Shown here one piece after another: positions 23 through 18,948 of a stretch of DNA of 25,574 nucleotides. The notes beneath the pieces are model-generated. The model was given only the letters and a program-made list of their open reading frames with translations, made no database searches and had not been told where the DNA came from. How positions within the stretch are numbered: the stretch's first letter is position 1; every line of letters starts with the position of its first letter. The stretch spans positions 1 to 25,574 of the IMG/VR virus record IMGVR_UViG_3300032163_001985, one strand, 5' to 3'. Source of the stretch: a virus. Position numbers and translations under genes: made by a program.

Positions 23-382
23 CTACCTCGTCTTCCCACACCCATTTCTCTCCCATTTATCCTTAGCCTTACCCGAAGCTATAGTTTGCCACTGCATGTT
101 TGACGGCCTATCTGCCCCGCCGCAGGCAAGCGGGATCACATGGTCTACGACATAGCCTTTACGCCCATGCGGATAACCAGAGAGTTTCCAAAATTCATGC
201 TTTGCCTCTAAGCTCCGCTTGATACTACCTCTATTCTCTTGTTTATGCTTGAGAGATTTTTGGGCATAACTGCGCTTAACGTGGATATATTTATATCTGG
301 CAGTTTTAGCGAAGCAGATTGACGGTGTGATTATAATGAGAATGATTAATAATGATATTATAGTTTTCAACCTTAATCTCAT
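23..382 (-). CDS. Secreted HNH endonuclease-like protein
   Basis: A 119-residue protein predicted to be a small exported nuclease. Residues 1-25 form a signal peptide (basic MRLRLK, a long Ile/Leu core, then ICFA before K26). The C-terminal half carries an HNH-type motif: D80-H81 in YVVDHVIPLACGG, N95 in the PSNMQWQ segment, and a lysine-rich end (KAKDKWE). The family is known for metal-dependent DNA cleavage; export to the periplasm is inferred from the signal peptide. A good Shine-Dalgarno sequence (GGAAGGAA) precedes the ATG on the minus strand. It is divergent from the phage late operon and may be a phage accessory gene or a neighbouring host gene. HNH genes often flank phage packaging genes, but those partners act in the cytoplasm, so the signal peptide argues against a packaging role. 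Confidence 0.8.
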   Translation of the reverse strand: MRLRLKTIISLLIILIIITPSICFAKTARYKYIHVKRSYAQKSLKHKQENRGSIKRSLEAKHEFWKLSGYPHGRKGYVVDHVIPLACGGADRPSNMQWQTIASGKAKDKWERNGCGKTR

Positions 383-585: not shown

Positions 586-3345
586 ATGGAGACAATATTG
601 TTAGACAAATATTTTCCGACATTTTCAAAAATTCTACCAAAGTTCCCCAAGAAATCTCTCCCAGCCCTTGCCGACGACGCATCATTTTTTAGAACCTCGC
701 GTATGCTGAATCTTGAGGCAGGCGCAGATTTGGCACATCCTTATCTAAGTTCTACTTCGGTTTATGCTGCGGCTCATAAGATTTCACAAAATATCTCTCA
801 AGTGCCTCTCAAGATTTATACCCAGCAATCAAAAGATAAAACAATCGAAATAACAGATGGCGCAATCTTTGATTTACTCCAATCCCCAAATATTTACATG
901 TCAAGGGAACAATTAATTGAATCCACGATTTTATACCTGCTCCTCAATGGTGAGGCTTTCTGGATATTAGACGGCAGGGATAACGTAACGAAGCTGCCTC
1001 AAGAGATTTGGTGTTTAGACCCAGCAAGATTTAATCCAATACAGAACAATCAAGGAATTTTGACAGGCTGGGCATATCGTAATGCAAATAAAACAATTCA
1101 GCTGAATACATGGGAAGTTATTCAATTTAAATTTCTAAATCCTTATTCTGAGCTAAGAGGTCTAAGCCCTCTGACATCCGCAGGATATTTTATCCAACTG
1201 GAAGTCTTCGCCTCTCAATTCAACGCCTCATTCTTTAAAAACGGCGCTAACTTCGGCGGGTCTCTGCAAACAGACAAACGCCTGACAGACGACCAGTTTA
1301 AACGTTTGATTGCTCAATTTGAAAACCGACACTCTGGAGTATCAAGGGCGCATAAGATAGCAATCCTTGAAGACGGCATTAAATTCATTGAAAATCGTTT
1401 ATCTCAAAAAGACATGGATTTCAATAATCTTTACAAGATAGCGCGTCAAAACATATTCGCTGCCCTGAATGTAAACTCTGTAGTGCTTGGAATGTATGAG
1501 GATGTCAAGAGTTACGAAGGCATCAAGACAGCGCATAAAACCTATTGGCAGGAATGTCTGATTCCTAAGATGAACATGATAACCAATAAACTTGATCACG
1601 GTCTATTCAAAGATATTGAAGGTGGTAAGTTCTGGCTTAGTTTTGATTTGTCGCAGGTATCTGCCCTTCATGAAGACTTTGACGAGAAGGTCGCTCAAGC
1701 GAAAACGCTTGTTGAGGCAGGTTTTGACGGTAATCAGATTAATGAACTGCTTGGTCTTGGTTTTGGTGAGGGGGCTTGGAGTCCGAAGTTTCCTAAAATC
1801 CAAGAGCTGCAATCTGCTGATATGTCCAAGACGATAGAGCCAGAATTTATAAAAAACAAGATACCCCGTCAGGCAGAGCCTGCCACCCCTTTTAAAAAAG
1901 GGGAATTAGAAGCAAAGGCAGCTAATGTTGACGATAAAAAGCATATCCTTGACGCTTATCTTGAGAGAATGCGCAGTGAATTTAACTCAGACTGGCTGTT
2001 TAATCCTGTTTTGGAATTATTGAATAAATGTACGGATTTAAAAGAGTTTGGAGATAAAGTAATAGATTGTTTTGGTTATTTTGATAATAAACTATCAGAT
2101 TTGTTAAGTTTAGCCAATGCAGCTTCTTTCATGGCTGGCAGGTATCAAGTACATTTACATAATCAACAGCAGTTAAATCAAACCAAGATGATAACTAAAG
2201 GCGCAGAGGTTAATTATTTTGATTTGCCGTTTGAAGAGGCTATTAAATTTTTTCAAGACAAAATTGAAATGACATCAAGTGATTATCACTCAATGATGGC
2301 TGAGGAACATCTAAAGGGCTTTACAATAGCAGGGATGATGAATTCAGATATGTTAGCAGACACAAAAAAAGCAGTCGAAAAAGGGCTTGTTGATGGAACA
2401 ACGCTTCATGAGTTCCGCAAAGATTTTAGCAATATAATAGACAAATACGGCTGGGAATATAAAGGTAATTCAATATGGCGGGCTGATACAATTTTTAGGA
2501 CTAATATGAATACATCATTTGCAGTTGGCAGGTATAAGCAGCAGAAAGAAGTTTCATATATATTGAATATTAAGAAATATATCACAGCAGGTGATGATAG
2601 AGTCAGGGATGAACATGCAAGATGGGATGGTGTAACTCTGCCCTTCGATGATCCATGGTGGGATAACCACGAACCGCCTGTTGACCCGCCCTATAATTGC
2701 AGGTGCAGCACTTTAACGTATATGGAGGGTACTGTACCAATTAAAGAAGCCCCGGAAGATGATATTCCTCAAACCAGCCACATAAAAGACGCATGGTGGG
2801 AGCAGCCATCAGAACAGGCAATGGCGGATTGGGAAAAGCAAGGCACTGGAGCATGGGAATATTTAACGCCTACAGATACTGTTGATAAGGATATTAATCT
2901 AAACGCTAATGATTTAAATACTATAGACAAAATAGATGACAGGGATGATTTGAGAGATTATATTGCAGCTCAGATTGGCGGAGACAAAAAGATATATTCT
3001 TTTATCAAGGATGAGTTCAAGTCTTCTTTGCTTGTTAATGCAAAGGTATTAAGCGAACATTTGGATTTAGATAGAACGCCTTACCTTCCATATTTTTTTG
3101 ATTCAGTTAATGATCCCGATGAGATATGGAGTTCAGTAGAAAGGAACAAGTTATCAGGGGCGATTGAATTAAGGCAAAGGACGATCAAAGGTTATGAGAT
3201 TGGTGATGAAAAAGATAAATACCTTATAAGTGTCTTTCAGTCAAGGGACGGAAAACTGGAATCTTGGACGATGATTCCTACATCAAATAAAAAATATATG
3301 CAGAAACAACGCATAGGCAGGCTGATATGGTCAAAAGAGGATTAA
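586..3345 (+). CDS. Portal-MuF-PBECR2 fusion protein
   Basis: A 919-residue fusion of three phage parts. Residues about 30-400 match the HK97-type portal family (the dodecameric DNA gate of the head). Residues about 590-715 match the Mu gpF/MuF head morphogenesis domain, with the typical ITAGDDRVRDEHA segment and PPYNCRC near residue 704. Residues about 810-919 resemble PBECR2, a barnase/EndoU/colicin E5-D/RelE-like nuclease family found at the end of MuF proteins, with conserved-looking ERNKLSG and RQRIGRLIW. Portal and MuF are usually separate genes; here a linker encoded by two palindromes (1872-1903) joins them. MuF proteins are thought to enter the cell with the DNA, so a nuclease tail could act as an injected effector; that is inference. 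The start is uncertain: the ATG at 586 has no Shine-Dalgarno, whereas TTG at 598 follows GGAG at 588-591 with 6 bases between. Confidence 0.9.
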   Translation: METILLDKYFPTFSKILPKFPKKSLPALADDASFFRTSRMLNLEAGADLAHPYLSSTSVYAAAHKISQNISQVPLKIYTQQSKDKTIEITDGAIFDLLQSPNIYMSREQLIESTILYLLLNGEAFWILDGRDNVTKLPQEIWCLDPARFNPIQNNQGILTGWAYRNANKTIQLNTWEVIQFKFLNPYSELRGLSPLTSAGYFIQLEVFASQFNASFFKNGANFGGSLQTDKRLTDDQFKRLIAQFENRHSGVSRAHKIAILEDGIKFIENRLSQKDMDFNNLYKIARQNIFAALNVNSVVLGMYEDVKSYEGIKTAHKTYWQECLIPKMNMITNKLDHGLFKDIEGGKFWLSFDLSQVSALHEDFDEKVAQAKTLVEAGFDGNQINELLGLGFGEGAWSPKFPKIQELQSADMSKTIEPEFIKNKIPRQAEPATPFKKGELEAKAANVDDKKHILDAYLERMRSEFNSDWLFNPVLELLNKCTDLKEFGDKVIDCFGYFDNKLSDLLSLANAASFMAGRYQVHLHNQQQLNQTKMITKGAEVNYFDLPFEEAIKFFQDKIEMTSSDYHSMMAEEHLKGFTIAGMMNSDMLADTKKAVEKGLVDGTTLHEFRKDFSNIIDKYGWEYKGNSIWRADTIFRTNMNTSFAVGRYKQQKEVSYILNIKKYITAGDDRVRDEHARWDGVTLPFDDPWWDNHEPPVDPPYNCRCSTLTYMEGTVPIKEAPEDDIPQTSHIKDAWWEQPSEQAMADWEKQGTGAWEYLTPTDTVDKDINLNANDLNTIDKIDDRDDLRDYIAAQIGGDKKIYSFIKDEFKSSLLVNAKVLSEHLDLDRTPYLPYFFDSVNDPDEIWSSVERNKLSGAIELRQRTIKGYEIGDEKDKYLISVFQSRDGKLESWTMIPTSNKKYMQKQRIGRLIWSKED
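1872..1903. repeat. Two adjacent palindromes inside the portal-MuF gene
   Basis: GGCAG-AGC-CTGCC (1872-1884) is followed at once by CCCCTTTT-AA-AAAAGGGG (1886-1903). They encode about residues 430-440, the flexible link between the portal and MuF domains, without breaking the frame. Short hairpins of this kind are usually intergenic in bacterial chromosomes, so this looks like a repeat that landed in, or helped create, the fusion joint. Confidence 0.75.
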
Positions 3346-3464: not shown

Positions 3465-3956
3465 ATGGGCGGAGTAACAATAAATGTTGAGATAAAAGAT
3501 GAAGCAGTAAGGCAATTATTTGCAGATATTCAAGGAAGATTGAGGGATTTATCTCCTGCATTAAAGATTATTGGTGAGATTGTGAGGACGTCTATAGCTG
3601 AAAACTTTCTTGCAGGCGGAAGACCTACAGCATGGAAACCGTCAATCCGTTCATCAATGTCAGGTGGTAATACATTGATTGATACAAAGATATTGATGAA
3701 CTCATTGACAGTTAAGCCAATTGATAATGATACAGTTGCAGTTGGCACAACTGTAGATTACGCCGCAATCCATCAGTTTGGAGGCACAATAAGCGCAATA
3801 AATGCAAAATATCTTAAATTTATGAGAGGCGGAAAAGGAACGCCTTGGGCAAGCAAGCAGTCAGTAACTATCCCAGCACGCCCTTTTATGATGATACAGG
3901 ACAGAGATTGGCAGACGATGGCAGCCGCTATTCGCAAGTATATATTAACGTCTTGA
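3465..3956 (+). CDS. Phage virion morphogenesis protein (Mu gpG / P2 gpS family)
   Basis: A 163-residue protein matching the phage virion morphogenesis/tail completion family. The centre has the family's DTKILMNSL stretch (usually DTG.L..S) and the TTVDYAAIHQFGGTI segment (YA..HQFGG is the best signature), followed by an IPARPFMMI tail. Members act in head completion or head-tail joining. In Mu-like phages this gene follows the MuF gene, as it does here after the fused portal-MuF. An AAGGAG ribosome site precedes the ATG. The stop codon (3954-3956) lies inside the left terminus of the first intergenic inverted-repeat element, so the last codons may come from the element. Confidence 0.85.
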   Translation: MGGVTINVEIKDEAVRQLFADIQGRLRDLSPALKIIGEIVRTSIAENFLAGGRPTAWKPSIRSSMSGGNTLIDTKILMNSLTVKPIDNDTVAVGTTVDYAAIHQFGGTISAINAKYLKFMRGGKGTPWASKQSVTIPARPFMMIQDRDWQTMAAAIRKYILTS

Positions 3957-4169: not shown

Positions 4170-5330
4170 ATGGAAGTTTTAGACGCATTGAAAGAAACAA
4201 ACGACCTTGTCAATAAAAGATTTGACAGAATCGAACAAGAACACGACGCAAGACTCAAGGCATTAGAGATGGGAAGCAAGGAAAGAAGGGTATCCGTATC
4301 AGGGCTTGAAGATGAAAAAGAAAGGTTTTCTATGTCAAAAGCCGTCATCGCAATCACGACAGGCGATTGGACAAACGCAGGATTTGAAAAGTCAGTATTT
4401 GAGGAAACCCGCAAAAAGGCAGCATCAGTCGGCAGCGACAGCGCAGGCGGCTTTATTGTGCCTATTCAGTATCTTGGCGATAATTTCATTGAACTATTAA
4501 GACCAAACAGCACAGTTATCCAGATGGGCGCAACCGTGCTTAACGGCTTAGTAGGGTCACCTGTTGAGATTCCAAAGCAGTTAAGCGGAGCTACAGCTTA
4601 CTGGATTGACGAGAATGCAAGCATTACAGACAGCCAGCAGAGTTATGGACAGTTAAACCTTAGACCACACTCTTTAGGCGCAGTCGTGATACTGTCTAAC
4701 AGATTTTTAAGAATGGCAAATCCATCTGCTGATAAGATGATCACACAAGACATAACTAAGGTTATGGCATTGGCAGTAGACCTTGCAGCATTAGCAGGAA
4801 CTGGAATAGGCGCTCAGCCTGTAGGGATAAAAAATACTGTTGGCGTTGGTTCTCTTGCAATCGGAGTTAATGGCGGCACGTTTGATTATGTTCAGGCGCA
4901 GAACATGGAAGGGCTCTTAGAAGACGCAAACGCTCTAAGAGGCAAATTAGGTTATATCATGTCTCCTGCGGTTAAAAGAGTATTAAAGAAGCAGAAAGTA
5001 CACTTCTTTAGCGGAGATACCAAAGGCTATCCATTAGGCGTTGTATCTGATGAGCAGTTGAAGTCATATCTTGGTTATGATTTTATGACCACAACACAAC
5101 TGCCTAACACAGCAACCAAAGGCGCTGGCACAGGCTTATCCACTGTCATCTTTGGTAATTTTGAAGAGCTCATCCTTGCTAACTGGGGAGATATAGAGAT
5201 TCTGGCAAGCAAAGAAACTTCTAACGCCTTTACTACTAACCAGACTTACATAAGGATTATACAAGAGACCGATATTGGCATTAGACATGCTGAGAGCTTT
5301 GCAGTATGTAACGACGCAGTATCTGCATAA
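4170..5330 (+). CDS. HK97-fold major capsid protein
   Basis: A 386-residue protein of the HK97-type major capsid family, the shell subunit of the phage head. Residues 1 to about 80 are charged and helical, as in the delta/scaffold region removed by the prohead protease. From about residue 90 the family pattern appears: SAGGFIVPIQYLGDNFIELL, then the ATAYWIDENASITDSQ segment and the LRPHSLGAVVILSNRFL strand, the helical DITKVMALAVDLAALAGTG region, and late strands around DIEILASKET. The matching protease is encoded two genes downstream. A strong GGAGG site (4157-4161) supplied at the right edge of repeat copy 1 sets the start. The gene is intact and of usual length. No cleavage site can be placed from sequence alone. 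Confidence 0.93.
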   Translation: MEVLDALKETNDLVNKRFDRIEQEHDARLKALEMGSKERRVSVSGLEDEKERFSMSKAVIAITTGDWTNAGFEKSVFEETRKKAASVGSDSAGGFIVPIQYLGDNFIELLRPNSTVIQMGATVLNGLVGSPVEIPKQLSGATAYWIDENASITDSQQSYGQLNLRPHSLGAVVILSNRFLRMANPSADKMITQDITKVMALAVDLAALAGTGIGAQPVGIKNTVGVGSLAIGVNGGTFDYVQAQNMEGLLEDANALRGKLGYIMSPAVKRVLKKQKVHFFSGDTKGYPLGVVSDEQLKSYLGYDFMTTTQLPNTATKGAGTGLSTVIFGNFEELILANWGDIEILASKETSNAFTTNQTYIRIIQETDIGIRHAESFAVCNDAVSA

Positions 5331-5335
5331 TTGAC

Positions 5336-5474
5336 TAATGAAAGAAATTTAAGATTTATGATTTAAGATTTATGATTTAAAAGCATTCAAAAAAACTGAT
5401 AATCTTTTAAATCTTTTCTTAAATCTTTTTTTAAATCTTAAATCATAAATCATAAATCATAAATTTTAAATTAA
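5336..5474. repeat. Heptad inverted-repeat element, copy 2 (orientation A)
   Basis: The left end TAATGAAAGAAATTTAAG starts six bases after the capsid stop codon. The core is at 5382-5413. The right arm of AAATCTT/AAATCAT units runs to about 5474, where a separate small hairpin begins. Confidence 0.88.
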
Positions 5475-5475
5475 C

Positions 5476-5498
5476 AGGGCAGCGTTTGAACCTGCCCT
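5476..5498 (+). promoter_or_regulatory. Hairpin in the leader of the decoration-like gene
   Basis: AGGGCAG (5476-5482), a 9-base loop, then CTGCCCT (5492-5498) form a 7-bp GC-rich hairpin. The Shine-Dalgarno AAGGAG follows before the ATG at 5518. It may be part of a chromosomal repeat or a weak attenuator; a run of A rather than T follows, so it is not a standard terminator. Confidence 0.5.
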
Positions 5499-5517
5499 TA
5501 TAAAAAAGGAGAAAAAC

Positions 5518-6249
5518 ATGCGCGATATTTCACAGAACATAGCAGTCAAAAACGCAATGTCTGGTCAGACAATCAATACCGGAAGTTTAACCAGCGGAAA
5601 CGGTCATGATATTGGTGACTTTAGCTCAATATGCGCAGCTCTTATGCTTGGAGGCTTCACGCCTTCAGCAACTACAGCAATATCATCCCTTGTACAGCTG
5701 CAGTCTTCCGCAGACGGAATAACCTTTGCAGACGTATCTGGAGTTAATCAGACCAATGTCATCAGCAACAAAAGACAGACGATTACCTTATCAACCGACT
5801 TGATAACAGGCAATGTTGTAGATATGAATATCACCCTCTACAATAACAAGCCTTGGGCATATGCCTTAGCAATGCCGCCTATAACATTCGGCACAGACCA
5901 TGCAACCACAAGGGCAGCTATTGTTTCTCAGTTGAATACTACCTTTGGCTCTATATTGACAGCTACAGCATCAGGCGACGTTATAACTCTGACTGCAAAT
6001 CAGGCAGGCGTTGACTTCAATGTTAATTCATGCGCAGTAACCCTTGGAGCGACTCAGCCAACAGTAGTAATTGCAACCAGCAACGCATTTTCAGGCTCTG
6101 GAGTTATGAAGTTTGATATTAACGCTAATTCAATAGCTAACCGTTATATCAGATTTAATGTTACCCACACCATAACAGGCGGTGGCTCTGCTCTTCAGAC
6201 CAGTATGGCAGTTATATGTTATGGAGCGCATAATTTACCAGTTGCATAG
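5518..6249 (+). CDS. Putative capsid decoration / structural protein
   Basis: A 243-residue beta-rich protein directly after the capsid gene. The first part (MSGQTINTGSLTSGNGHDIG, then SLVQLQSSADGITFADVSG) and the last part (RYIRFNVTHTITGGGSALQ, ICYGAHNLPVA) resemble small phage structural proteins that often follow the capsid gene, in which a measured-value-like beta domain ends in a YIR..VT..G strand. Residues about 105-195 look like an inserted domain, with TTRAAIVSQLNTTFGS and the DVITLTANQAGVDFNVN stretch, a pattern seen in other phage surface proteins. Position and composition suggest a head decoration protein, but this is inference. An AAAAAGGAG site sets the start. Confidence 0.55.
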   Translation: MRDISQNIAVKNAMSGQTINTGSLTSGNGHDIGDFSSICAALMLGGFTPSATTAISSLVQLQSSADGITFADVSGVNQTNVISNKRQTITLSTDLITGNVVDMNITLYNNKPWAYALAMPPITFGTDHATTRAAIVSQLNTTFGSILTATASGDVITLTANQAGVDFNVNSCAVTLGATQPTVVIATSNAFSGSGVMKFDINANSIANRYIRFNVTHTITGGGSALQTSMAVICYGAHNLPVA

Positions 6250-6258
6250 TACATAAAT

Positions 6259-6313
6259 ATTGGTCTTAGACCAATTGAGCGGGGGGCAAAAAGTCCTCCT
6301 TGAGCCTCCCGCT
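6259..6313 (+). terminator. Tandem hairpins after the decoration-like gene
   Basis: ATTGGTC-TTA-GACCAAT (6259-6275) is followed by AGCGGG (6278-6283) pairing with CCCGCT (6308-6313) around a loop of about 24 bases. The positions just downstream of a stop codon fit a terminator or an RNA-stabilising structure, but only a short mixed A/T stretch follows and no clear U-tract is present. Confidence 0.4.
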
Positions 6314-6493
6314 TGAATTAATTTAAGATTCAATGAAGAAATTTATGATTTATGATTTATGATTTATGATTTAAAAAAAGATTAAAGAAAAAGATTTAAA
6401 AGATTATCAGTTTTTTTGAATGCTGTTAAATCATAAATCTTAAATCTTAAATTTCTTCATTAAATCATAAATCATAAATCTTAAATTAATTCA
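6314..6493. repeat. Heptad inverted-repeat element, copy 3 (orientation B)
   Basis: It has a clean 17-base terminal inverted repeat: TGAATTAATTTAAGATT at the left end and AATCTTAAATTAATTCA at the right. The left arm has four ATGATTT units, the core is at 6393-6424 in the opposite orientation to copy 1, and the right arm holds AAATCAT/AAATCTT units with an internal TTTCTTCATT. The Shine-Dalgarno CGGAG of the protease gene lies immediately beyond the right end. Confidence 0.9.
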
Positions 6494-6507
6494 CACGGAG
6501 ATAGACA

Positions 6508-7506
6508 ATGAATAAAACGTATAAACGTTTAAAAGGTGTCATCAAATCAGTAGACACAACCAACTACACAGTTGACGCCGTTATATCGTCATCCGCAGTT
6601 GACAGATATAACGAGGTAATAGCCATAGACGCATGGAAAGATGGGCTTGTTGAGTATATGAAGCACCCTGTGCTTCTAACATCTCATGATTACTCAGAGC
6701 TTACCAGCCAGATAGGCATAGCCCTTTCAATCGGCATTGTAGGGAATGAACTAATCGCAAAGTTTAAATATTTTGTAGGCGAAGGCAACCCAGAGGCAGA
6801 TTGGGCGTTTAACCTTGCAAGTAAAGGACAGGCAGCTTATTCAGTAGGCTTTGAATCCCTTGCCTCAGAGACTCCAAGCGAGGATATTAATGGAGTTGAC
6901 GTAGAAAGGATTTATACAAAGGTAAATCTGCTTGAGGTATCACAGGTGTTGATTCCTGCAAATCCAGAGGCCCTGCAAAAGGTAAAACAGTTGATTGCAG
7001 ATTTTGAAGACGCAAAGGATGAGATTGTTCCAGCCCTGAAAACTGCAAGGCAAGTTATTGAAGAGTATGCAGATGTAATGGGCTGGCACCACTCTATCAG
7101 AGAAAGTCTTTTTCCAGGCGGACAGAAAGAAAAAACAGCGGATGTAGAGAAGAAATCACGACATCAATTAAGCGCTGGAATAGATATAGCAATTGATAAA
7201 TTGATAGAAATTCAAGACGGTATAAATAATTTGGAAGCGGAGGCTAAAATGGAAGAGAAAAAGAAGACAGATACAACCCTTGAAGATAGGATAAAAGAGC
7301 TGGAAGTCTGCATTAAGGATTTGGATAAAAGGATTATGGAATTAGAGTCTCAAAATGCAAAACTTGAGAAGTCATTATCTGCGCATTTTATATTTACATG
7401 CAGTCATCTTGATAGTCTTGACTCAAGGCTTAAAAATGCTGATCATGATTTTGATAAACAATTCATCGATGACTTAAAAACCCTTAATTTGAGGTTAAAA
7501 CTCTAA
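6508..7506 (+). CDS. HK97-type prohead protease (U35) with C-terminal coiled coil
   Basis: A 332-residue protein. Residues 1 to about 165 match the caudovirus prohead protease family, which trims the capsid protein during head maturation. Visible catalytic candidates are H60 in LLTSHDYSE and S112 in QAAYSVGFES. The family-typical LLEVSQVLIPANPEA follows at 141-155. Residues about 170-247 are helical, and 248-332 form a strongly charged coiled coil (DRIKELEVCIKDLDKRIMEL) that could serve as a scaffold. The gene is downstream of the capsid gene, whereas portal-protease-capsid is the commoner order. The ATG follows CGGAG at the edge of repeat copy 3. An internal start may give a separate scaffold product (7249-7506). 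Confidence 0.88.
   Translation: MNKTYKRLKGVIKSVDTTNYTVDAVISSSAVDRYNEVIAIDAWKDGLVEYMKHPVLLTSHDYSELTSQIGIALSIGIVGNELIAKFKYFVGEGNPEADWAFNLASKGQAAYSVGFESLASETPSEDINGVDVERIYTKVNLLEVSQVLIPANPEALQKVKQLIADFEDAKDEIVPALKTARQVIEEYADVMGWHHSIRESLFPGGQKEKTADVEKKSRHQLSAGIDIAIDKLIEIQDGINNLEAEAKMEEKKKTDTTLEDRIKELEVCIKDLDKRIMELESQNAKLEKSLSAHFIFTCSHLDSLDSRLKNADHDFDKQFIDDLKTLNLRLKL
7249..7506 (+). CDS. Possible nested scaffold protein from an internal start
   Basis: Within the protease gene, ATG at 7249 (residue 248, in frame) follows GGAGG at 7239-7243 with a 5-base spacer, a stronger ribosome site than many in this window. It would yield an 85-residue, highly charged coiled-coil protein ending at the same stop. 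Lambda C/Nu3 is the known precedent: a protease whose C-terminal part is also made alone as scaffold. Here the match to Shine-Dalgarno could also be chance from Glu-Ala-Glu codons. The product is predicted, not shown. Confidence 0.4.
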   Translation: MEEKKKTDTTLEDRIKELEVCIKDLDKRIMELESQNAKLEKSLSAHFIFTCSHLDSLDSRLKNADHDFDKQFIDDLKTLNLRLKL

Positions 7507-7507
7507 G

Positions 7508-8110
7508 ATGAAACTTGCCTCATTGGACCAGCTCAAACTGATGTTGTCTATCACTGATACATCTCAGGACGCTTTGTTAAACCTGTTTTTAGAGATGGTG
7601 TCTGGTGAAATAGAGACATATCTTAATCGTTTCTTAAAATCGGAGCAGAGAACGGAAAAGTTTGATTTCCATACCAATATCAATCAGATGGGAACGGATA
7701 CGGTTCTTCTGAAGGCATATCCCGTAGATTTGGCAAAGCCTTTGACTGTTCAGTTCAGACAGAGCAGCTCTGATATTATTTATTATGATTATAAGATAAA
7801 TACAGATTTCTTTATCTTAGAAGATGATGGGATTATCAAGTTTATTTATCACCTGCCTTCATATCCGCCATTATCAATATACGTTAATTACACAGGCGGT
7901 TATGCTGCAGATATTAATGGTGTGTTGGCATGTCCAGATGACTTGACATCAGCTTGTTTAATGCAATGCAGATATGATTATATGCAGCGCAATAACATTG
8001 GTGTCACAGAGATTTCATTCCAAAGAGAATTGAGGCAGATGACGCCTGTTTATGATTTATTGCAAAGAGTTAAAAATATGTTGGATAGACATAGGAGTTA
8101 TGCGAAATGA
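7508..8110 (+). CDS. Head-tail connector protein, gp6-like
   Basis: A 200-residue protein resembling the gp6-like head-tail connector (adaptor) family, which forms a ring beneath the portal. The N-terminal helices (LDQLKLMLSITDTSQDALL, then a segment like VSGEIETYLNR) fit the family start, in which a short helical hairpin is followed by an arginine-rich turn. The middle is beta-rich and contains a LSIYVNYTGGY strand, and a C-terminal helical part (CPDDLTSACLMQCRYDYMQ) follows, as in connectors with an inserted beta domain. It begins one base after the protease stop and overlaps the next gene by ATGA, so translation is probably coupled. It is placed as expected, at the end of the head genes. 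Confidence 0.75.
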   Translation: MKLASLDQLKLMLSITDTSQDALLNLFLEMVSGEIETYLNRFLKSEQRTEKFDFHTNINQMGTDTVLLKAYPVDLAKPLTVQFRQSSSDIIYYDYKINTDFFILEDDGIIKFIYHLPSYPPLSIYVNYTGGYAADINGVLACPDDLTSACLMQCRYDYMQRNNIGVTEISFQRELRQMTPVYDLLQRVKNMLDRHRSYAK

Positions 8111-10798: not shown

Positions 10799-13759
10799 AT
10801 GATAACACATGCTAATGCAAATTCAGGGAGCAGCAATCAAGCGGTAGCTCTTGACGCTTGCAGGCTGGCAACTACAGGGGCTAACCTATCCGTTACTGCG
10901 GCAGGTTCAAGAGATACAAAAATCTTGGTTGCAAATGCAAATGGCGCATTCTCTCTTGACAGCATTTCTGGGAATTTACTTGACAGGGTGTTAGTCAAAG
11001 ACCAGACAAACGGAGTTGATAACGGTATTTATTTTATATCAATACTTGGAGACGCATCTCATCCATATGTTTTGATGAGAACTCCAGACTCAAATACCAG
11101 TTTATTGAGCGGCACTACTGTTTATATCTCAGGCGGGGCGTTAAATATAGGAAATGTCTATACCCTAAGCACTCCAGATATAATAACGCTGGACACAACA
11201 GCATTAACCTTTATATTAACAAACGGGGTTGGCGGAACTTCTCCAAATTCGCCAATAAAGGTTAATCCATCCGTAATAAATAACTTTGTGTCTTTTAGTG
11301 ATACGGTTGGAAATCAAAAAGATAGCGGCAATAATATCTCATCCTTTGACGCAGCAGGTACAGCAGCAACTGTAATCAATGCGCACAAGGATTTAACGAC
11401 AGGGGTTCACGGAGTCGGGGCAGGCACGATTGCTAAGGTATCGGATATAACCGCAACTCAAGCAGGCGCAGAACCATCAGGCGCAGTCAATACACATAAT
11501 GCCTTAACAACAGGGGTTCACGGTGTCGGGGCAGGCACAGTTGCCAAGATATCAGATATAACCGCAGCTCAAGCTGGGGCAGACGTTGCAGGTACAGCTG
11601 CTGCAGCAGTCAATGCGCACAAGGATTTAACAACAGGAGTTCACGGAGTCGGGGCTGGCACAGTTGCTAAGGTATCGGATATTACCGCAACTCAAGCAGG
11701 CGCAGAACCATCAGGCGCAGTCAATACACATAATGCCTTAACAACAGGGGTTCACGGAGTAGGCGCAGGCACAGTTGCCAAGATATCAGATATAACCGCA
11801 GCTCAGGCTGGGGCAGACGCAACAGGTACAGCTGCTGCAGCAGTCAATGGACACAAGGATTTGACAACAGGGGTTCACGGTGTAGGCGCAGGTACAATTG
11901 CTAAGATATCGGATATAACCGCAACTCAAGCAGGCGCAGAACCATCAGGCGCAGTAAATACTCATAATGCCTTGACAACAGGGGTTCACGGAGTAGGCGC
12001 AGGCACAGTTGCCAAGATATCAGATATAACCGCAGCTCAGGCTGGGGCAGAACCATCTGGCGCAGTAAATACTCATAATGCCTTGACAACAGGGGTTCAC
12101 GGTGTCGGGGCTGGCACAGTTGCCAAACTAACGGATATAACATATGCAAACGCAGGGGCACCAGCAATCGTGAATCCATCAGTAACAGATAATTTTGTTG
12201 GTTTTTCAAATACAACAGGCAGTCAAAAGGACAGCGGTAAAAATGCTGCATCCTTTGAACCATCTGGTAACGTTGCAACGCATGCAGCCTTAACAACAGG
12301 AGTTCATGGTGTCGGGGCAGGCACGATTGCTAAGGTATCGGATATAACCGCAACTCAAGCAGGCGCAGAACCATCTGGCGCAGTCAATACACATAATGCC
12401 TTAACAACAGGCGTTCACGGCGTAGGCGCAGGAAGTGTGGCAGGAACCACATTAACGCAAACATTAACTAACAAGACATTAACTGCTCCAACCATTTCAG
12501 ATTTTACAAATGCAAACCATACTCATACCGGGGCTTCAAGTGGAGGCAGCATCAGCGGTACAGGAGGACTTCCACAATCAAGTTTAGATATATCTAACGA
12601 TAACATTAATCTTGCTATGCTTTTACGTTTGCAAGCAGGTTCGCTACCGTTTCAACGTATGGTTAATTGCATGGCTGATGGGTTTGCTGACCAAACTGGG
12701 ATTGATACTACCAACAGCATTAATCAAGTATATGGGACTCAATTATATACACCAGTTGGGCTTGCTTATACTACAGCGTTACTTCGTTTCAATGGCGCAA
12801 ACAATGGGACTGTATTTACTGATACCACAGGTTTGAATACATGGACAGCCGCTAGTGGCGCGGTTACTACAACGGATCAGCATAAATTTGGCACGGCTTC
12901 TGGACAATTTAATGGATCATCATCATTAATTTCAGCTCCTGCAGGTGCTAATTTTAATGTTGGAACTAATGATTTTACTATAGATTTTTGGGTGAAAAGG
13001 GCTTCTACGTCAAGTTCGAGTTATATTTGTGGGCAATTTGACGGAACGAATCTCTCAACAATGCAGCATGTTATAGGCATTAATTCTAACAATACAATAA
13101 CATGGGAAGGCTATTTAATATCAGACAGTTCACTCGCCTCAACGGCTACTATTACAGATACAACAACGTGGCATCACATTGCGCTTGTCAGATATGGCGC
13201 AAACTTAACCATATATCTGGATGGAACATCTATAGCAACAAGGGCAGACTTAAGCGGAATTAACTTTGCTTCAAGTTCATACAATTTTACTATTGGACGT
13301 GCTGGAAACCTTGCTCAGCAATATTTCAATGGATATATTGATGAGTTCAGATTTAGCAAAGGTATAGCAAGATGGACAGCAAATTTTACTCCTCCGACAA
13401 CGGAATATCAGTCAGTCGATATGATGACATTGCTTACAAATGCTTATACGGCATTATCTGCTCCATCATCATATATTAGAGTATTGCTATTACAAGAAGA
13501 CCCTGACGTTTCAAATGTTAATGCCGTAAATACTGATTTTAAAGTATATGCCAGTATGGATAACGGCACAAATTATTATGAAGTCACAGGGTTAGCTAAG
13601 GCGGCAATATATGCTGCAGGGGCAACAGCCGCAGGAAAATGTGTATATACAGGCAGTTTATCAACATCTGGCATGGTATCAGGCACATCTATCAAGGCTA
13701 AGATAGTCACATTAGGCAAAAATATAAATATAAGAGGAATAGCGTTAAATTGGATTTAA
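10799..13759 (+). CDS. Large tail fibre with tandem repeats and LamG domain
   Basis: A 986-residue fibre-like protein. Residues about 192-548 hold nine copies of a segment with TTGVHGVGAG, most in a 33-36 residue unit that also carries AKISDITAAQAGA and AVNTHNAL; variants alternate, so the higher-order period is two units. A longer module beginning VNPSV occurs before and inside the array. Next comes the fibre motif TLTNKTLTAPTISDFTNANH. Residues about 660-872 are a LamG/concanavalin-like domain (DFTIDFWVKRA, WHHIALVRYGANLTIYLDG, then GYIDEFRFSKG), expected to bind surface sugars or proteins. The C-terminal 110 residues are unrecognised. The protein probably makes a trimeric or elongated host-recognition fibre. 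No chaperone gene is seen. Confidence 0.82.
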   Translation: MITHANANSGSSNQAVALDACRLATTGANLSVTAAGSRDTKILVANANGAFSLDSISGNLLDRVLVKDQTNGVDNGIYFISILGDASHPYVLMRTPDSNTSLLSGTTVYISGGALNIGNVYTLSTPDIITLDTTALTFILTNGVGGTSPNSPIKVNPSVINNFVSFSDTVGNQKDSGNNISSFDAAGTAATVINAHKDLTTGVHGVGAGTIAKVSDITATQAGAEPSGAVNTHNALTTGVHGVGAGTVAKISDITAAQAGADVAGTAAAAVNAHKDLTTGVHGVGAGTVAKVSDITATQAGAEPSGAVNTHNALTTGVHGVGAGTVAKISDITAAQAGADATGTAAAAVNGHKDLTTGVHGVGAGTIAKISDITATQAGAEPSGAVNTHNALTTGVHGVGAGTVAKISDITAAQAGAEPSGAVNTHNALTTGVHGVGAGTVAKLTDITYANAGAPAIVNPSVTDNFVGFSNTTGSQKDSGKNAASFEPSGNVATHAALTTGVHGVGAGTIAKVSDITATQAGAEPSGAVNTHNALTTGVHGVGAGSVAGTTLTQTLTNKTLTAPTISDFTNANHTHTGASSGGSISGTGGLPQSSLDISNDNINLAMLLRLQAGSLPFQRMVNCMADGFADQTGIDTTNSINQVYGTQLYTPVGLAYTTALLRFNGANNGTVFTDTTGLNTWTAASGAVTTTDQHKFGTASGQFNGSSSLISAPAGANFNVGTNDFTIDFWVKRASTSSSSYICGQFDGTNLSTMQHVIGINSNNTITWEGYLISDSSLASTATITDTTTWHHIALVRYGANLTIYLDGTSIATRADLSGINFASSSYNFTIGRAGNLAQQYFNGYIDEFRFSKGIARWTANFTPPTTEYQSVDMMTLLTNAYTALSAPSSYIRVLLLQEDPDVSNVNAVNTDFKVYASMDNGTNYYEVTGLAKAAIYAAGATAAGKCVYTGSLSTSGMVSGTSIKAKIVTLGKNINIRGIALNWI
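11374..12440 (+). repeat. Tandem DNA repeats inside the fibre gene
   Basis: Roughly 100-108 base units repeat across this stretch with high identity (ACAGGGGTTCACGG is present in most), giving nine TTGVHGVGAG copies in the protein. Differences between copies are mostly silent or Thr/Ala and Val/Ile swaps, so copies seem to be homogenised. Slippage or recombination could change fibre length. Confidence 0.85.
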
Positions 13760-15727: not shown

Positions 15728-16069
15728 ATGCAAGCCTTAAAGGATTATAATCAGACATTTCCTGCAATGAGATATTTCGTTGAAATGTTCAAGGAACTTG
15801 AAATATTAAAGGAACTTGAAATAAAAATAGAAAATAGATTAATGACAAGGGTTGATAAAAGAATTATAGAACAAAAGGCTTGCAAAGCCAGGCATAAAGA
15901 TAAAATAAAACAATACCAAAGAATTTATTATAAAGCATATAGGGCAAGTAACAAAGAAAAAGTAACAGAATACCAAAAAAATTACCGAGAAAATCATAAA
16001 GAAAAAATAGCAGCATGTAAAAAAGAATGGCGTATGAGAAAAGAGGTTATTGAATGTCAACTTGGTTAA
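15728..16069 (+). CDS. Small basic coiled-coil protein
   Basis: A 113-residue protein that I cannot assign to a function. Residues about 15-45 form a helix (MFKELEILKELEIKIENRL). Residues about 55-105 are very basic and semi-repetitive: KDKIKQYQRIYYKAYRASN, KEKVTEYQKNYRENH, then KEKIAACKKEW. This Y..N.EK....K.W pattern is common in phage HNH/GIY-type DNA-binding proteins, but no nuclease core is present, so it may be the remaining DNA-binding part or an independent nucleic-acid-binding protein. AAGGAG (15712-15717) precedes the ATG by 10 bases, and the 3' end overlaps the next gene by 16 bases, suggesting coupled translation. Confidence 0.65.
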   Translation: MQALKDYNQTFPAMRYFVEMFKELEILKELEIKIENRLMTRVDKRIIEQKACKARHKDKIKQYQRIYYKAYRASNKEKVTEYQKNYRENHKEKIAACKKEWRMRKEVIECQLG

Positions 16070-18948
16070 GCGGATATAAAAACAGGCTTCAATTAACGAT
16101 AGACCACACAAAGATAACCAGCGCCTTGACTAATTTTCCTATAATGGTCAAGTTGTCTGCCTCTTGCGGGATAACGGCAAAAGATATGTCTAATATCTTT
16201 GACTCTATCCCATCGTCAACTGGTTATCAGAATATAATTATCATGGGTTCTGATAATGTAACCCAAATATACGCAGAGGTACAGTCATGGAATCCTACAA
16301 CTAAGATAGCCGTTTTATGGGTAACTATCCCTTCAATAAGCTCAACGGTTGACACAGTATTTTACATCTATTATAATAATAGTATTAGTAATACAGCCTA
16401 TATTGGACTTACGGGGGCAAGCGCAACTATTGCAGCTCAAGTTTGGGATACCAACTATCAGGCAGTCCATCATCTTGAACAAGACCCATCAGGAACTGCT
16501 CCGCAGATTATAGACAGCTCTACCAATGCTTGGAATGGCGCAACATACGGCTCAATGACCAGCGGGCAGCTTGTCTCTGCTATAATCGGCAATGGATTGA
16601 GTCTTGACGGCAGCAATGATTATATTGATATCGGCAATGTTGCGCATAGCTCTGCAATATCCTTAGAATGTATTATTAAACCAACGTCATCAGGACTATG
16701 GCAATATATTATTAGTAGATCAAATACAGCCCATCAGTTTTTTTTAGCGTTGCAGTCAGATAATACTCTGAAATTGTATTGTAACGATGGTACAAACGCC
16801 TTCACATTATCAAGCGCGTCAACATTCAATACAAATACTTGGTATCATATAGCCGCAATATTACCAGGAGCAGGATATTCTGCTTATATCTATATAAATG
16901 GAGTTCAAGACGCCACCGCCAATCAATCATATTCTATTCAAAGTATAAATAACCATATCACTTATGGATGGAATCAGGCACTTACTGCGGGGAGACAATT
17001 TCATGGGATAATAGATGAATTTAGAATATCTAAGACATCCCGCAGCGCAAGCTATGTAAAGGCGTCTTATTACAGCTCTTCTGATAATCTGATAACCTAT
17101 TCCCTGCAATTTCAAGGTACACGCGCATTCTCTAATGATATATATGACTGCTGGGGAACAAGATATTTTAGTAATTTAATAGCGAATACCTTAGTGAACA
17201 GATGTTCTAAGAATATTATTACAGAAGGTTTTAACCGTTACTCAAAATGCGCAATGACAGAAGATTATACACAATATTTTATTAATGAAATCATAGATGG
17301 TAAAAAGATAAGAACAGTTTTTAGTAATGATATTTCTTTGGGATTTAATAAGACGCAATATTTTGGCAGTTCCCTTGACGCTTACTGTACTATAAGACAA
17401 TATTCTTTAAACCAGCTGGCAGAACCAGAGGCGATAATATTAACGCCTGCTGCCTCTCCATCTCCATCAAACCCTGCGCCATCAAACCCTGCGCCATCTA
17501 GTTTCTTTGATGTACGGATTGACGGCATATCCGTGACACATCTAATCAATAGCGTGAATATTCGCATTGCTGAAAGCAGTTTTACTAATCAAGTGACAAT
17601 CACATTTTTAAACCTTGATATGTACAATCAATGCGACCCTGCAATCAATTATGGAATGGAAAGAATAATAGTAACTATTTCGGGCAATGTCTATAAATTT
17701 GTAATTGAGAACCGAAACCGTTCAGAGCAATTTGGTTCATATCGTTTCACCCTTACAGGACGGCAGTTACCCATATTTTTAGGAGCGGGCTTTGCGCTGC
17801 CAGCAGATAATATTTTAGAGAACAAGATGGCGTCGTCAATTGCCGCAACGCTTGGGGGAAATCTTGTAAACATCACATGGAGCGCAATGGATTATTTTAT
17901 ACCTGATTTTACGTATATTGGATTCCCTATTGACGGCATCAAGATATTAGCAGACGGAGTTGGCGCAATAATGCGCGCAACCTCAGATGGTCAATTGATA
18001 ATAAGAAAGAAATTTGGAGTAAGACCAGAAAACCTTTCAAGTATAGTTCCGCCTTTTATATTCAGAGATTCACAGATATTAAAAAGAGAGATAGCGGAGC
18101 AAAAGGCGACATATAACGCAGTTGAGGTAATATCTACAGGTAATAGCGCAGATGCCCTTGAGTTAACGCCTATGGACACATGTATAACTATTGATGCCGT
18201 AAGCAAGGTAAAGGTATATACAGGACGAAATAAAGATTATAAGATAAATATCTCATCAGGTACCTTGACCAAGATGTCAACGGGCAGCCTTGAAACCTTG
18301 CAGGAGCAGATAATAATAACCGCAGGCAGGGGACTCACGTCAAAACGGATATTTGGCGTAAATAGTTATGAGTTTATACAATGCCCAAACGCAAACGCTC
18401 CGAAAGGCTCAACATTAGGTTTGTTGACAAACCCTTATGACGGATTAAAATATCCATTTAATTGGATAAAAGGCTCTAAAGACATACTATTAGCAGGGAC
18501 AGGAACGGAGCCTGAGCGATACACAGGACAGAATACTCCGATACAAGAAGGAATCCTAATCATAAATTATAACACAATTTATGACCTATGGACTGTAAGT
18601 AATAATGTTGCGGGGAGTATTATGATGGCTGCGGAGACGGCAAATCAAGGGATCAATATGATTGTTGTAACAGGTGATGGCGCGCGCATGGCAAGCCCAA
18701 TCCAACATCCATATATCAGCGCGCATGGACAGGCGGTAGAGATAGCTACCGCATCTTTGGATGAGACATCAACAAAGAAATATATATATAAGATAACAGT
18801 TCCTTATTGCAACGCCTATGATGGACAGCTGGCAATGGTAGATAATAAAAAAGGATATATAAGACAGGCGAATATTACGCTTGATGTAAAGGATAAGGCG
18901 GCGGTTATCATGCAGGAATTGATGATAGAAATTTATGAAGAAATTTAA
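16054..18948 (+). CDS. DUF2341-LamG protein fused to a tail hub-like domain
   Basis: A 964-residue mosaic protein. Residues 1-125 resemble DUF2341 (WLSGYKNRLQLTID, then FPIMVKLS and TVFYIYYNN). Residues about 136-349 are LamG/concanavalin-like (GLSLDGSNDYIDIG, NTWYHIAAIL, GIIDEFRISK). After an unrecognised segment and a Pro/Ser linker (about 466-484), residues about 485-964 look like a baseplate hub of the gpD/gp27/gpP type: FFDVRIDGISVTHLI, YGMERIIVTISGNVYKFVIE, and the phrase FTLTGRQLPIF, with late IYKITVPYCNAYDGQ. DUF2341-LamG pairs usually occur on bacterial surface proteins, so attachment to a tail hub suggests host adhesion; the hub call is inference. The final EIYEEI and stop are written in repeat-element sequence (18928-18948). 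Confidence 0.65.
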   Translation: MSTWLSGYKNRLQLTIDHTKITSALTNFPIMVKLSASCGITAKDMSNIFDSIPSSTGYQNIIIMGSDNVTQIYAEVQSWNPTTKIAVLWVTIPSISSTVDTVFYIYYNNSISNTAYIGLTGASATIAAQVWDTNYQAVHHLEQDPSGTAPQIIDSSTNAWNGATYGSMTSGQLVSAIIGNGLSLDGSNDYIDIGNVAHSSAISLECIIKPTSSGLWQYIISRSNTAHQFFLALQSDNTLKLYCNDGTNAFTLSSASTFNTNTWYHIAAILPGAGYSAYIYINGVQDATANQSYSIQSINNHITYGWNQALTAGRQFHGIIDEFRISKTSRSASYVKASYYSSSDNLITYSLQFQGTRAFSNDIYDCWGTRYFSNLIANTLVNRCSKNIITEGFNRYSKCAMTEDYTQYFINEIIDGKKIRTVFSNDISLGFNKTQYFGSSLDAYCTIRQYSLNQLAEPEAIILTPAASPSPSNPAPSNPAPSSFFDVRIDGISVTHLINSVNIRIAESSFTNQVTITFLNLDMYNQCDPAINYGMERIIVTISGNVYKFVIENRNRSEQFGSYRFTLTGRQLPIFLGAGFALPADNILENKMASSIAATLGGNLVNITWSAMDYFIPDFTYIGFPIDGIKILADGVGAIMRATSDGQLIIRKKFGVRPENLSSIVPPFIFRDSQILKREIAEQKATYNAVEVISTGNSADALELTPMDTCITIDAVSKVKVYTGRNKDYKINISSGTLTKMSTGSLETLQEQIIITAGRGLTSKRIFGVNSYEFIQCPNANAPKGSTLGLLTNPYDGLKYPFNWIKGSKDILLAGTGTEPERYTGQNTPIQEGILIINYNTIYDLWTVSNNVAGSIMMAAETANQGINMIVVTGDGARMASPIQHPYISAHGQAVEIATASLDETSTKKYIYKITVPYCNAYDGQLAMVDNKKGYIRQANITLDVKDKAAVIMQELMIEIYEEI

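What the first reader, a model, noticed from the sequence alone, without database searches (positions are those of the whole stretch)
586..3345. Portal, MuF and PBECR2 nuclease-like domain in one protein
MuF proteins with C-terminal toxin-like domains are known from temperate phages, and HK97 portals fused to MuF are known, but a portal-MuF-PBECR2 chain puts a nuclease-like effector at the end of the portal subunit itself. Twelve portal copies would carry twelve effector domains at the DNA entry vertex. No obvious immunity gene follows; the next gene is the gpG-like protein.
Basis: partly seen in the sequence, partly recalled or inferred. Interest (0 to 1): 0.7.

Follow-up and report, generated by a model that had tools for sequence, protein, structure and literature searches.

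The report
Phage portal fused to Mu head protein
This virus carries a single long gene in which the ring protein that lets DNA into the phage head is joined to a second head protein ending in a predicted RNA-cutting domain; the joined part was borrowed from Mu-like phages, so it is an unusual mosaic of known pieces rather than a new kind of machine.

Summary
ORF 586-3345 (919 aa, no stop) holds a Phage_portal domain (E 6e-64), a Phage_Mu_F domain (7e-15) and PBECR2 (6.6e-17), all above Pfam cut-offs. A near-identical contig has the same ORF, so it is not an assembly slip.

PBECR2 was not added to a portal. It is the C-terminal domain of many Mu-type gpF proteins, and the whole C-terminal half is a captured Mu cassette: the tail of a Mu-type portal (residues 456-520), gpF (MuF-PBECR2), then gpG after a typical 119-nt gap. 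The portal core, capsid, S78 protease and connector belong to another lineage, in which portal-MuF fusions are common and PBECR2 was not seen. Portal-MuF-PBECR fusions as such were reported in 2017 (Iyer et al.).

Predicted active-site residues (His825, Thr895) are kept. The domain folds confidently (pLDDT 94.5), but structure searches gave no significant BECR match. No immunity gene follows.

Likely mechanism: the covalent link replaces the portal-MuF docking known from SPP1 and places up to 12 copies inside the capsid for delivery with the DNA. Delivery, release and RNase activity are inferred. Verdict: new variant of a known kind.

The parts
586..3345 (+). whole fused gene: HK97-type portal core, Mu-type portal tail, gpF (MuF-PBECR2), 919 aa
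757..1725 (+). HK97-type portal core (PF04860, residues 58-380)
   Evidence: nearest relatives are portal-MuF fusions, L092 46.6%; model matches GTA and HK97 portals, E 1e-16
1783..1950 (+). interval in which the two parents were joined (residues 400-455)
   Evidence: HK97-type similarity ends near residue 399; Mu-type tail begins at 456; pLDDT below 50 at 407-442
1951..2145 (+). C-terminal tail of a Mu-type portal (residues 456-520)
   Evidence: phmmer best E 4.7e-8 to Mu-type portals; iterated profile 169 hits in Mu-type portals, 0 of 69 HK97-type portal-MuF fusions at E below 1e-3
2188..2190 (+). ATG of Met535, about where free-standing gpF proteins begin; no Shine-Dalgarno match
2365..2712 (+). 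MuF domain (PF04233, residues 594-709)
   Evidence: groups with Mu gpF
2935..3342 (+). PBECR2 domain (residues 784-919; Pfam match 800-915)
3058..3060 (+). codon of His825, the predicted active-site His (end of a helix)
   Evidence: 58 of 74 distinct sequences have His, 9 a gap, 5 Arg; model
3268..3270 (+). codon of Thr895, the predicted active-site Thr (fourth strand after the helices)
   Evidence: 69 of 74; model
3465..3956 (+). gpG-like gene (PF05069), Mu-derived, 119 nt after the fused gene
4170..5330 (+). HK97-type major capsid protein (PF05065), of the portal-core lineage
6508..7506 (+). S78 prohead protease (PF04586), of the portal-core lineage; candidate for releasing the C-terminal part
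   Evidence: the role in release is inference
7508..8110 (+). gp6-like head-tail connector (PF05135), of the portal-core lineage

Best explanation
The gene is the phage's portal gene with a captured Mu-type head cassette. Recombination joined the core of an HK97-type portal gene to the end of a Mu-type portal gene, its neighbour gpF (MuF-PBECR2) and gpG, leaving portal and gpF in one frame (shown by sequence comparison). The chain forms the portal ring. The MuF-PBECR2 part, joined by linkers that look flexible, sits inside the capsid at the portal, so the covalent link does what portal-MuF binding does in phage SPP1, but fixes the number at up to one per subunit (inferred). PBECR2 keeps the predicted active site of a metal-independent RNase. 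It is most likely released, perhaps by the S78 protease, and enters the host with the DNA to act on RNA early in infection (inferred, not shown).
For: One ORF with three domains above cut-off. Two ancestries along one chain: portal core nearest to HK97-type portal-MuF fusions (L092, 46.6%), MuF nearest to Mu gpF (136 bits against 60.8 for the best HK97-type fusion), PBECR2 up to 45% identical to Mu gpF. The Mu portal tail is found in Mu-type chains and not in HK97-type fusions. In the quick MuF tree of 199 rows the window lies with Mu gpF (SH-aLRT 98, branch 1.99) and apart from all 57 HK97-type fusions. gpG hits 105 of 154 Mu-portal loci and 2 of 131 HK97-portal loci; capsid, protease and connector hit 39, 80 and 9 of 131 HK97-portal loci and none of 154 Mu-portal loci. 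gpF-gpG spacing is typical: 41 of 64 within 150 nt, window 119. His825 and Thr895 are kept and lie in a helix and in strand 4 of a pLDDT 94.5 model, as Iyer et al. describe. SPP1 gp7 is brought into the procapsid by portal binding (PMC6316719, passages).
Against: No structure search gave a significant match to a BECR RNase: 0 PDB hits at E 0.001 or better; the one BECR toxin seen, 6cp9, has Z 3.6 at rank 9, below the unrelated PARP2 WGR domain at Z 4.4. Nothing shows that the domain is delivered or active. His825 is not invariant (58 of 74). The fusion with an HK97-type portal was seen in one phage population only. The portal's own start lacks a Shine-Dalgarno match. The tree is a quick one; the careful search did not finish.
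Confidence: 0.55

Rival explanations
1. The PBECR2 domain is a structural or DNA-pilot part of gpF that does not cut RNA; the fusion only ties a DNA-ejection helper to the portal.
For: PHROG 220, which matches residues 530-918, is annotated as minor head protein and DNA pilot. No immunity gene next to the window gene or, in 46 of the 64 loci with a gpG-like gene, room for more than 400 nt before gpG. The invariant positions (P844, E846, W848, R909, G911: 74 of 74) are not the predicted catalytic pair, and His825 is His in 58 of 74. No significant match to a known RNase fold. SPP1 gp7, which has no toxin, helps infection start.
Against: Many gpF proteins lack the domain altogether, and PBECR2 presence needs at least 25 changes on the quick tree, which fits an exchangeable effector better than a needed structural part. 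His and Thr are kept in most members.
Confidence: 0.27
2. The gpF part is also, or only, made separately from an internal start (Met535), so that the portal ring carries few or no effector copies.
For: Met535 stands about where free gpF proteins begin. 41 of 125 free gpF genes also lack a recognisable Shine-Dalgarno sequence, so its absence here is weak evidence.
Against: No Shine-Dalgarno match at Met535; the one internal site (TTG at codon 547, GAGGT 13 nt before it) is badly spaced and inside the conserved N-terminal motif. The ORF runs through without a stop. HK97-type relatives are mostly fused.
Confidence: 0.1
3. A classical MuF polymorphic toxin with its own immunity gene, used by a lysogen against competitors.
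For: MuF toxins with antibacterial activity exist (Bxa, Apk2; PMC11699363, passages). ADP-ribosyltransferase domains on portal-MuF chains (L106, L243) show that effectors ride on such chains.
Against: No immunity gene: a 36-aa overlapping ORF, then gpG; [quoted passage not shown] The domain came with the gpF-gpG cassette, not as a toxin-immunity cassette.
Confidence: 0.06
4. Artefact: two genes merged by an assembly or sequencing error.
For: In free relatives the Mu portal stop lies beyond the first gpF start in 50 of 66 cases, so one indel could fuse such genes.
Against: A second contig has the same frame with 1 mismatch in 9,342 bases. The window's portal core is HK97-type, so a slip in a Mu operon cannot make it; the sister HK97-type portals are fused to MuF as well.
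Confidence: 0.02

Closest known systems
Portal-MuF-PBECR fusions of Iyer et al. 2017 (PMC5512222)
   Same: same classes of domain in one chain, predicted RNase, His plus Thr active site
   Different: reported as a class in a figure not held here, so the portal family of their examples could not be seen; an HK97-type core on a Mu-type portal tail is not mentioned in the passages read
Mu-type gpF (gp30) with C-terminal PBECR2, e.g. Rhizobium phage RR1-B, Thermus phage Riverbug, Meiothermus phage MMP7
   Same: MuF-PBECR2; in RR1-B a Neck1 (gpG-type) gene follows as here
   Different: free-standing after a separate portal gene; here fused to the portal
Fused portal-MuF genes (Microbacterium cluster EA and EB phages, PMC7302621; 88 distinct HK97-type chains here with the window counted)
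   Same: HK97-type portal and MuF in one chain (for the chains; the portal family of the Microbacterium phages was not checked)
   Different: 75 of the 88 end within 40 residues after MuF, and none but the window has PBECR2 or the Mu portal tail
Loktanella sp. 3ANDIMAR09 chain (L231)
   Same: portal-MuF-PBECR2 in one 977-aa ORF
   Different: portal is Mu-type (PF06074); its MuF lies elsewhere on the tree, so probably an independent fusion
MuF polymorphic toxins (Jamet et al. 2017; Bxa; Apk2)
   Same: MuF followed by a possible effector
   Different: no immunity gene here, different C-terminal family, fused to the portal

Membership tests
PBECR2 (PF18810) | profile match above the gathering score | tested here: met
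   62.3 bits in the whole chain, 66.2 alone, cut-off 27.1
PBECR2 (PF18810) | His in the helix and Thr/Ser in strand 4 (configuration from PMC5512222) | tested here: met
   His825 at the end of helix 36-42 and Thr895 in strand 107-116 of the model; their spatial closeness was not measured
PBECR2 (PF18810) | BECR fold by structure comparison | tested here: inconclusive
   no Foldseek hit at E 0.001; 6cp9_C (BECR tRNase toxin) Z 3.6, 82 aligned, rmsd 5.2, rank 9; top row Z 4.4 is a PARP2 WGR domain
PBECR2 (PF18810) | RNase activity | not testable with these tools
   needs a bench assay
HK97-type portal (PF04860) | profile match and portal fold | tested here: met
   216.6 bits; GTA portal 6toa E 1.3e-16 TMt 0.69, HK97 portal 8cez E 3.8e-16 TMt 0.65
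Mu-type gpF | MuF domain of the gpF clade | tested here: met
Mu-type gpF | own gene after a separate Mu-type portal gene | tested here: not met
   fused; only the tail of the Mu-type portal is present
Mu-type gpF | gpG gene follows | tested here: met
   119 nt gap
MuF polymorphic toxin | small immunity ORF directly downstream | tested here: not met
   36-aa overlapping ORF, then gpG of 163 aa
MuF polymorphic toxin | temperate phage | not tested
   the record is 25.6 kb and may be a fragment; no dedicated search for lysogeny genes was made

The most novel reading that the evidence does not exclude
The portal ring itself is an effector carrier: every subunit holds one active RNase inside the capsid, giving a fixed ring of up to twelve that is loaded without any docking step and freed at maturation or ejection. 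The same solution arose separately with at least two portal families and two effector classes (PBECR2 here and in L231; ADP-ribosyltransferase in L106 and L243).
Probability: 0.17. Interest if true: 0.65.

Novelty: new variant of a known kind. Interest (0 to 1): 0.42.

Why it matters
MuF proteins are thought to bring effectors into phage heads by binding the portal, in few copies. A covalent portal-effector chain would make that idea directly testable, because copy number and location are set by the portal. The case also shows a portal gene recombined inside its coding region between unrelated head lineages, with the joined part changing owner together with gpG.

Tried and rejected
Tried without result: phmmer of the C-terminus against PDB sequences gave only designed TIM barrels (best E 0.019), and a 71-sequence profile gave nothing up to E 10. 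PHROGs gave no hit for the isolated C-terminus; whole-chain hits such as PHROG 220 cover it. Foldseek against PDB and against BFVD gave no hit at E 0.001. In VIA-align no BECR family other than 6cp9 was noticed among the 50 rows shown; this excludes nothing. A tblastn with the C-terminus alone in the phage collection found 3 records, and a scan of viral contigs with the PBECR2 domain alone found only the near-identical contig.

Considered and rejected: assembly error (second contig); a new effector bolted onto a portal (gpF ancestry); a toxin-immunity pair. An internal start was not fully excluded. The lack of a Shine-Dalgarno match at Met535 is given little weight, because 41 of 125 free gpF genes lack one too.

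Architectures come from profiles that I built starting from the window. Pfam was run on 21 related proteins one by one (3, 9, 6 and 3) and on a set of 30 (4 of them also). The group called MuF without PBECR2 in the tree includes 5 rows that lie with the HK97-type fusions. The careful tree did not finish; a quick tree is quoted. The host was not determined.

Full report
WHAT WAS CHECKED. Pfam places Phage_portal (PF04860) at residues 58-380 with E 6.2e-64, Phage_Mu_F (PF04233) at 594-709 with 7.3e-15, and PBECR2 (PF18810) at 800-915 with 6.6e-17, each above its curated cut-off. Another contig, L002, has the same protein, with one base difference in 9,342 overlapping bases; L091 is the same contig fetched again. 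The next sizeable gene is the gpG-like gene at 3465-3956, and only a 36-aa + strand ORF overlaps the end of the fused gene.

WHERE THE PIECES COME FROM. In 80 viral loci found through MuF motifs (best 80 of 566) and 80 bacterial-genome loci (best 80 of 559), the MuF-PBECR2 protein is as a rule free-standing. Of 89 ORFs with both domains in the 249 loci then held (three of them copies of the window gene), 79 have a separate Mu-type portal ORF ending within 300 nt, and only the window gene and L231 are joined to a portal; Pfam confirmed the Mu-type portal (PF06074) in L011 and L231. In loci found through portal motifs, HK97-type portals are mostly fused to MuF: of 88 distinct fused chains, the window's included, 75 end within 40 residues after MuF, 9 have 150 residues or more after it, and only the window has PBECR2.

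The window chain combines both parents. Its portal core is nearest to the HK97-type fusions (L092, 46.6% identity). Its MuF domain scores 136 bits against a Mu gpF but at most 60.8 against an HK97-type fusion, and its PBECR2 is up to 45% identical to a Mu gpF. Residues 456-520 match the C-terminal tail of Mu-type portals (phmmer best E 4.7e-8); an iterated profile has 169 hits in Mu-type portals and none at E below 1e-3 in the 69 HK97-type fusions then held, the nearest being 0.0032. In a quick MuF tree of 199 rows, the window lies with 69 gpF, 63 MuF without PBECR2 and 4 Mu portal-MuF fusions, apart from all 57 HK97-type fusions (SH-aLRT 98, branch 1.99; the careful search did not finish). 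The gpG gene hits 105 of 154 Mu-portal loci against 2 of 131 HK97-portal loci (the 131 count the window's own copies, which were left out of the hits), whereas capsid, S78 protease and connector hit 39, 80 and 9 HK97-portal loci and no Mu-portal locus. A block from the Mu portal tail through gpF to gpG was thus spliced into an HK97-type head module, with the join between residues 400 and 455. The gap from fused gene to gpG is 119 nt; among 74 distinct MuF-PBECR2 ORFs, 64 have a gpG-like gene on the locus, 41 of these within 150 nt, 5 more within 400 and 18 beyond 1,000.

THE DOMAIN. An AlphaFold2 model of residues 784-919 from 71 sequences has mean pLDDT 94.5 and pTM 0.83. Iyer et al. [quoted passage not shown] Here His825 ends a helix and Thr895 lies in the fourth strand after the helices. 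Among 74 distinct sequences, His is found in 58 (9 gaps, 5 Arg) and Thr in 69, while P844, E846, W848, R909 and G911 are invariant. Iyer et al. note one PBECR family with Arg for His. Structure searches did not confirm the fold: no PDB hit at E 0.001, and in VIA-align the BECR tRNase toxin CdiA-CT Kp342 (6cp9; listed as BECR in PMC9086364, passages) has Z 3.6 over 82 residues at rank 9, behind PARP2 WGR domains at up to Z 4.4. This is inconclusive. The full-length model (pLDDT 76.3, pTM 0.46) shows a confident portal and PBECR2, with low confidence at 407-442, 518-581 and 728-739; it matches GTA and HK97 portals (E 1e-16).

HOW IT LIKELY WORKS. Shown by sequence: the chain, its two ancestries, the kept active-site residues. 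Known in other phages: the portal of the siphophage JBD30 has twelve copies (PMC11445458, passages), and SPP1 gp7, a MuF protein, is brought into the procapsid by the portal in a few copies and is dispensable for assembly but helps infection start (PMC6316719, passages). Inferred: the fusion makes this loading covalent; the MuF-PBECR2 part lies inside the capsid; it is released by the S78 protease or at ejection; it cuts host RNA early in infection. An internal start at Met535, about where free gpF begins, has no Shine-Dalgarno match, but neither do 41 of 125 free gpF genes, so this is weak evidence.

HOW COMMON, AND IN PRINT. In the phylum of a Desulfobulbaceae genome (handle of L171) it passed the cut-off in 23 of 395 genomes, with no open frame over 478 aa in any of the 33 places listed. 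In the order of the Loktanella genome it was found in 4 of 390 genomes, in 5 places, one frame of 1,023 aa lying in the Loktanella genome itself. So portal fusions are rare. They are not new as a class: Iyer et al. [quoted passage not shown] Fig. 5A itself not held), and fused portal-MuF genes are described in Microbacterium phages. 'PBECR2' is in one paper and 'PBECR' in two papers of the held library. Searches on MuF, portal and fusion showed, in the listings and the passages read, no HK97-type core on a Mu-type portal tail; this covers only open-access papers.

WIDER PATTERN. Single chains of portal, MuF and an enzyme domain occur with other effectors: L106 (HK97-type portal, MuF, intein-like HINT region, ADPrib_exo_Tox 1.3e-25) and L243 (Mu-type portal, MuF, ART 1.8e-8); L254 has a portal with a methyltransferase. 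PBECR2 presence on MuF needs at least 25 changes on the quick tree, of which well-supported branches force 5. This fits an exchangeable module.

VERDICT. The thing is a mosaic head gene with a predicted effector, a new variant of a known kind, of moderate interest.

Noticed in passing
window 23-382 (-) and L002 1-357 (-): Two small genes opposite to the portal with hydrophobic, signal-like N-termini (by eye): one with a weak HNH match (PF14279 E 0.01, below cut-off; PHROG 6050 2.7e-4), the other, just beyond the window's edge, PLD-like (PLDc_2 2.4e-8). Possibly exported nucleases.
   Followed up: partly
window 4170-7506: The S78 prohead protease gene lies after the capsid gene, whereas in the relatives L250/L251 the protease-like ORF directly follows the portal-MuF gene; the Mu block may have displaced it.
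   Followed up: partly
L093, L106, L145, L254: Intein or HINT-like regions lie inside portal or portal-MuF chains; in L106 one sits between MuF and an ADP-ribosyltransferase domain, so splicing or release of the effector are both possible.
   Followed up: partly
L243 4201-8061 and L231 4651-7584: Mu-type portal-MuF chains with ART (1286 aa) and with PBECR2 (977 aa), separate from the window's fusion.
   Followed up: partly
L254 2116-5799: HK97-type portal with an N-terminal intein-like region and a C-terminal methyltransferase domain.
   Followed up: no
L253 3701-8374; L259 4152-6980; L098; L103: Portal-MuF chains with long unassigned extensions (805 residues after MuF in L253, about 290 before the portal in L259, 260 after MuF in L098, 359 in L103).
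   Followed up: no
window 10799-13759 and 16054-18948: Two large tail-region proteins with Laminin_G_3 domains; the first has many near-identical repeats.
   Followed up: no
window 586: The portal gene's own start has no Shine-Dalgarno match while most other genes here do; a TTG four codons on has GGAG upstream.
   Followed up: no
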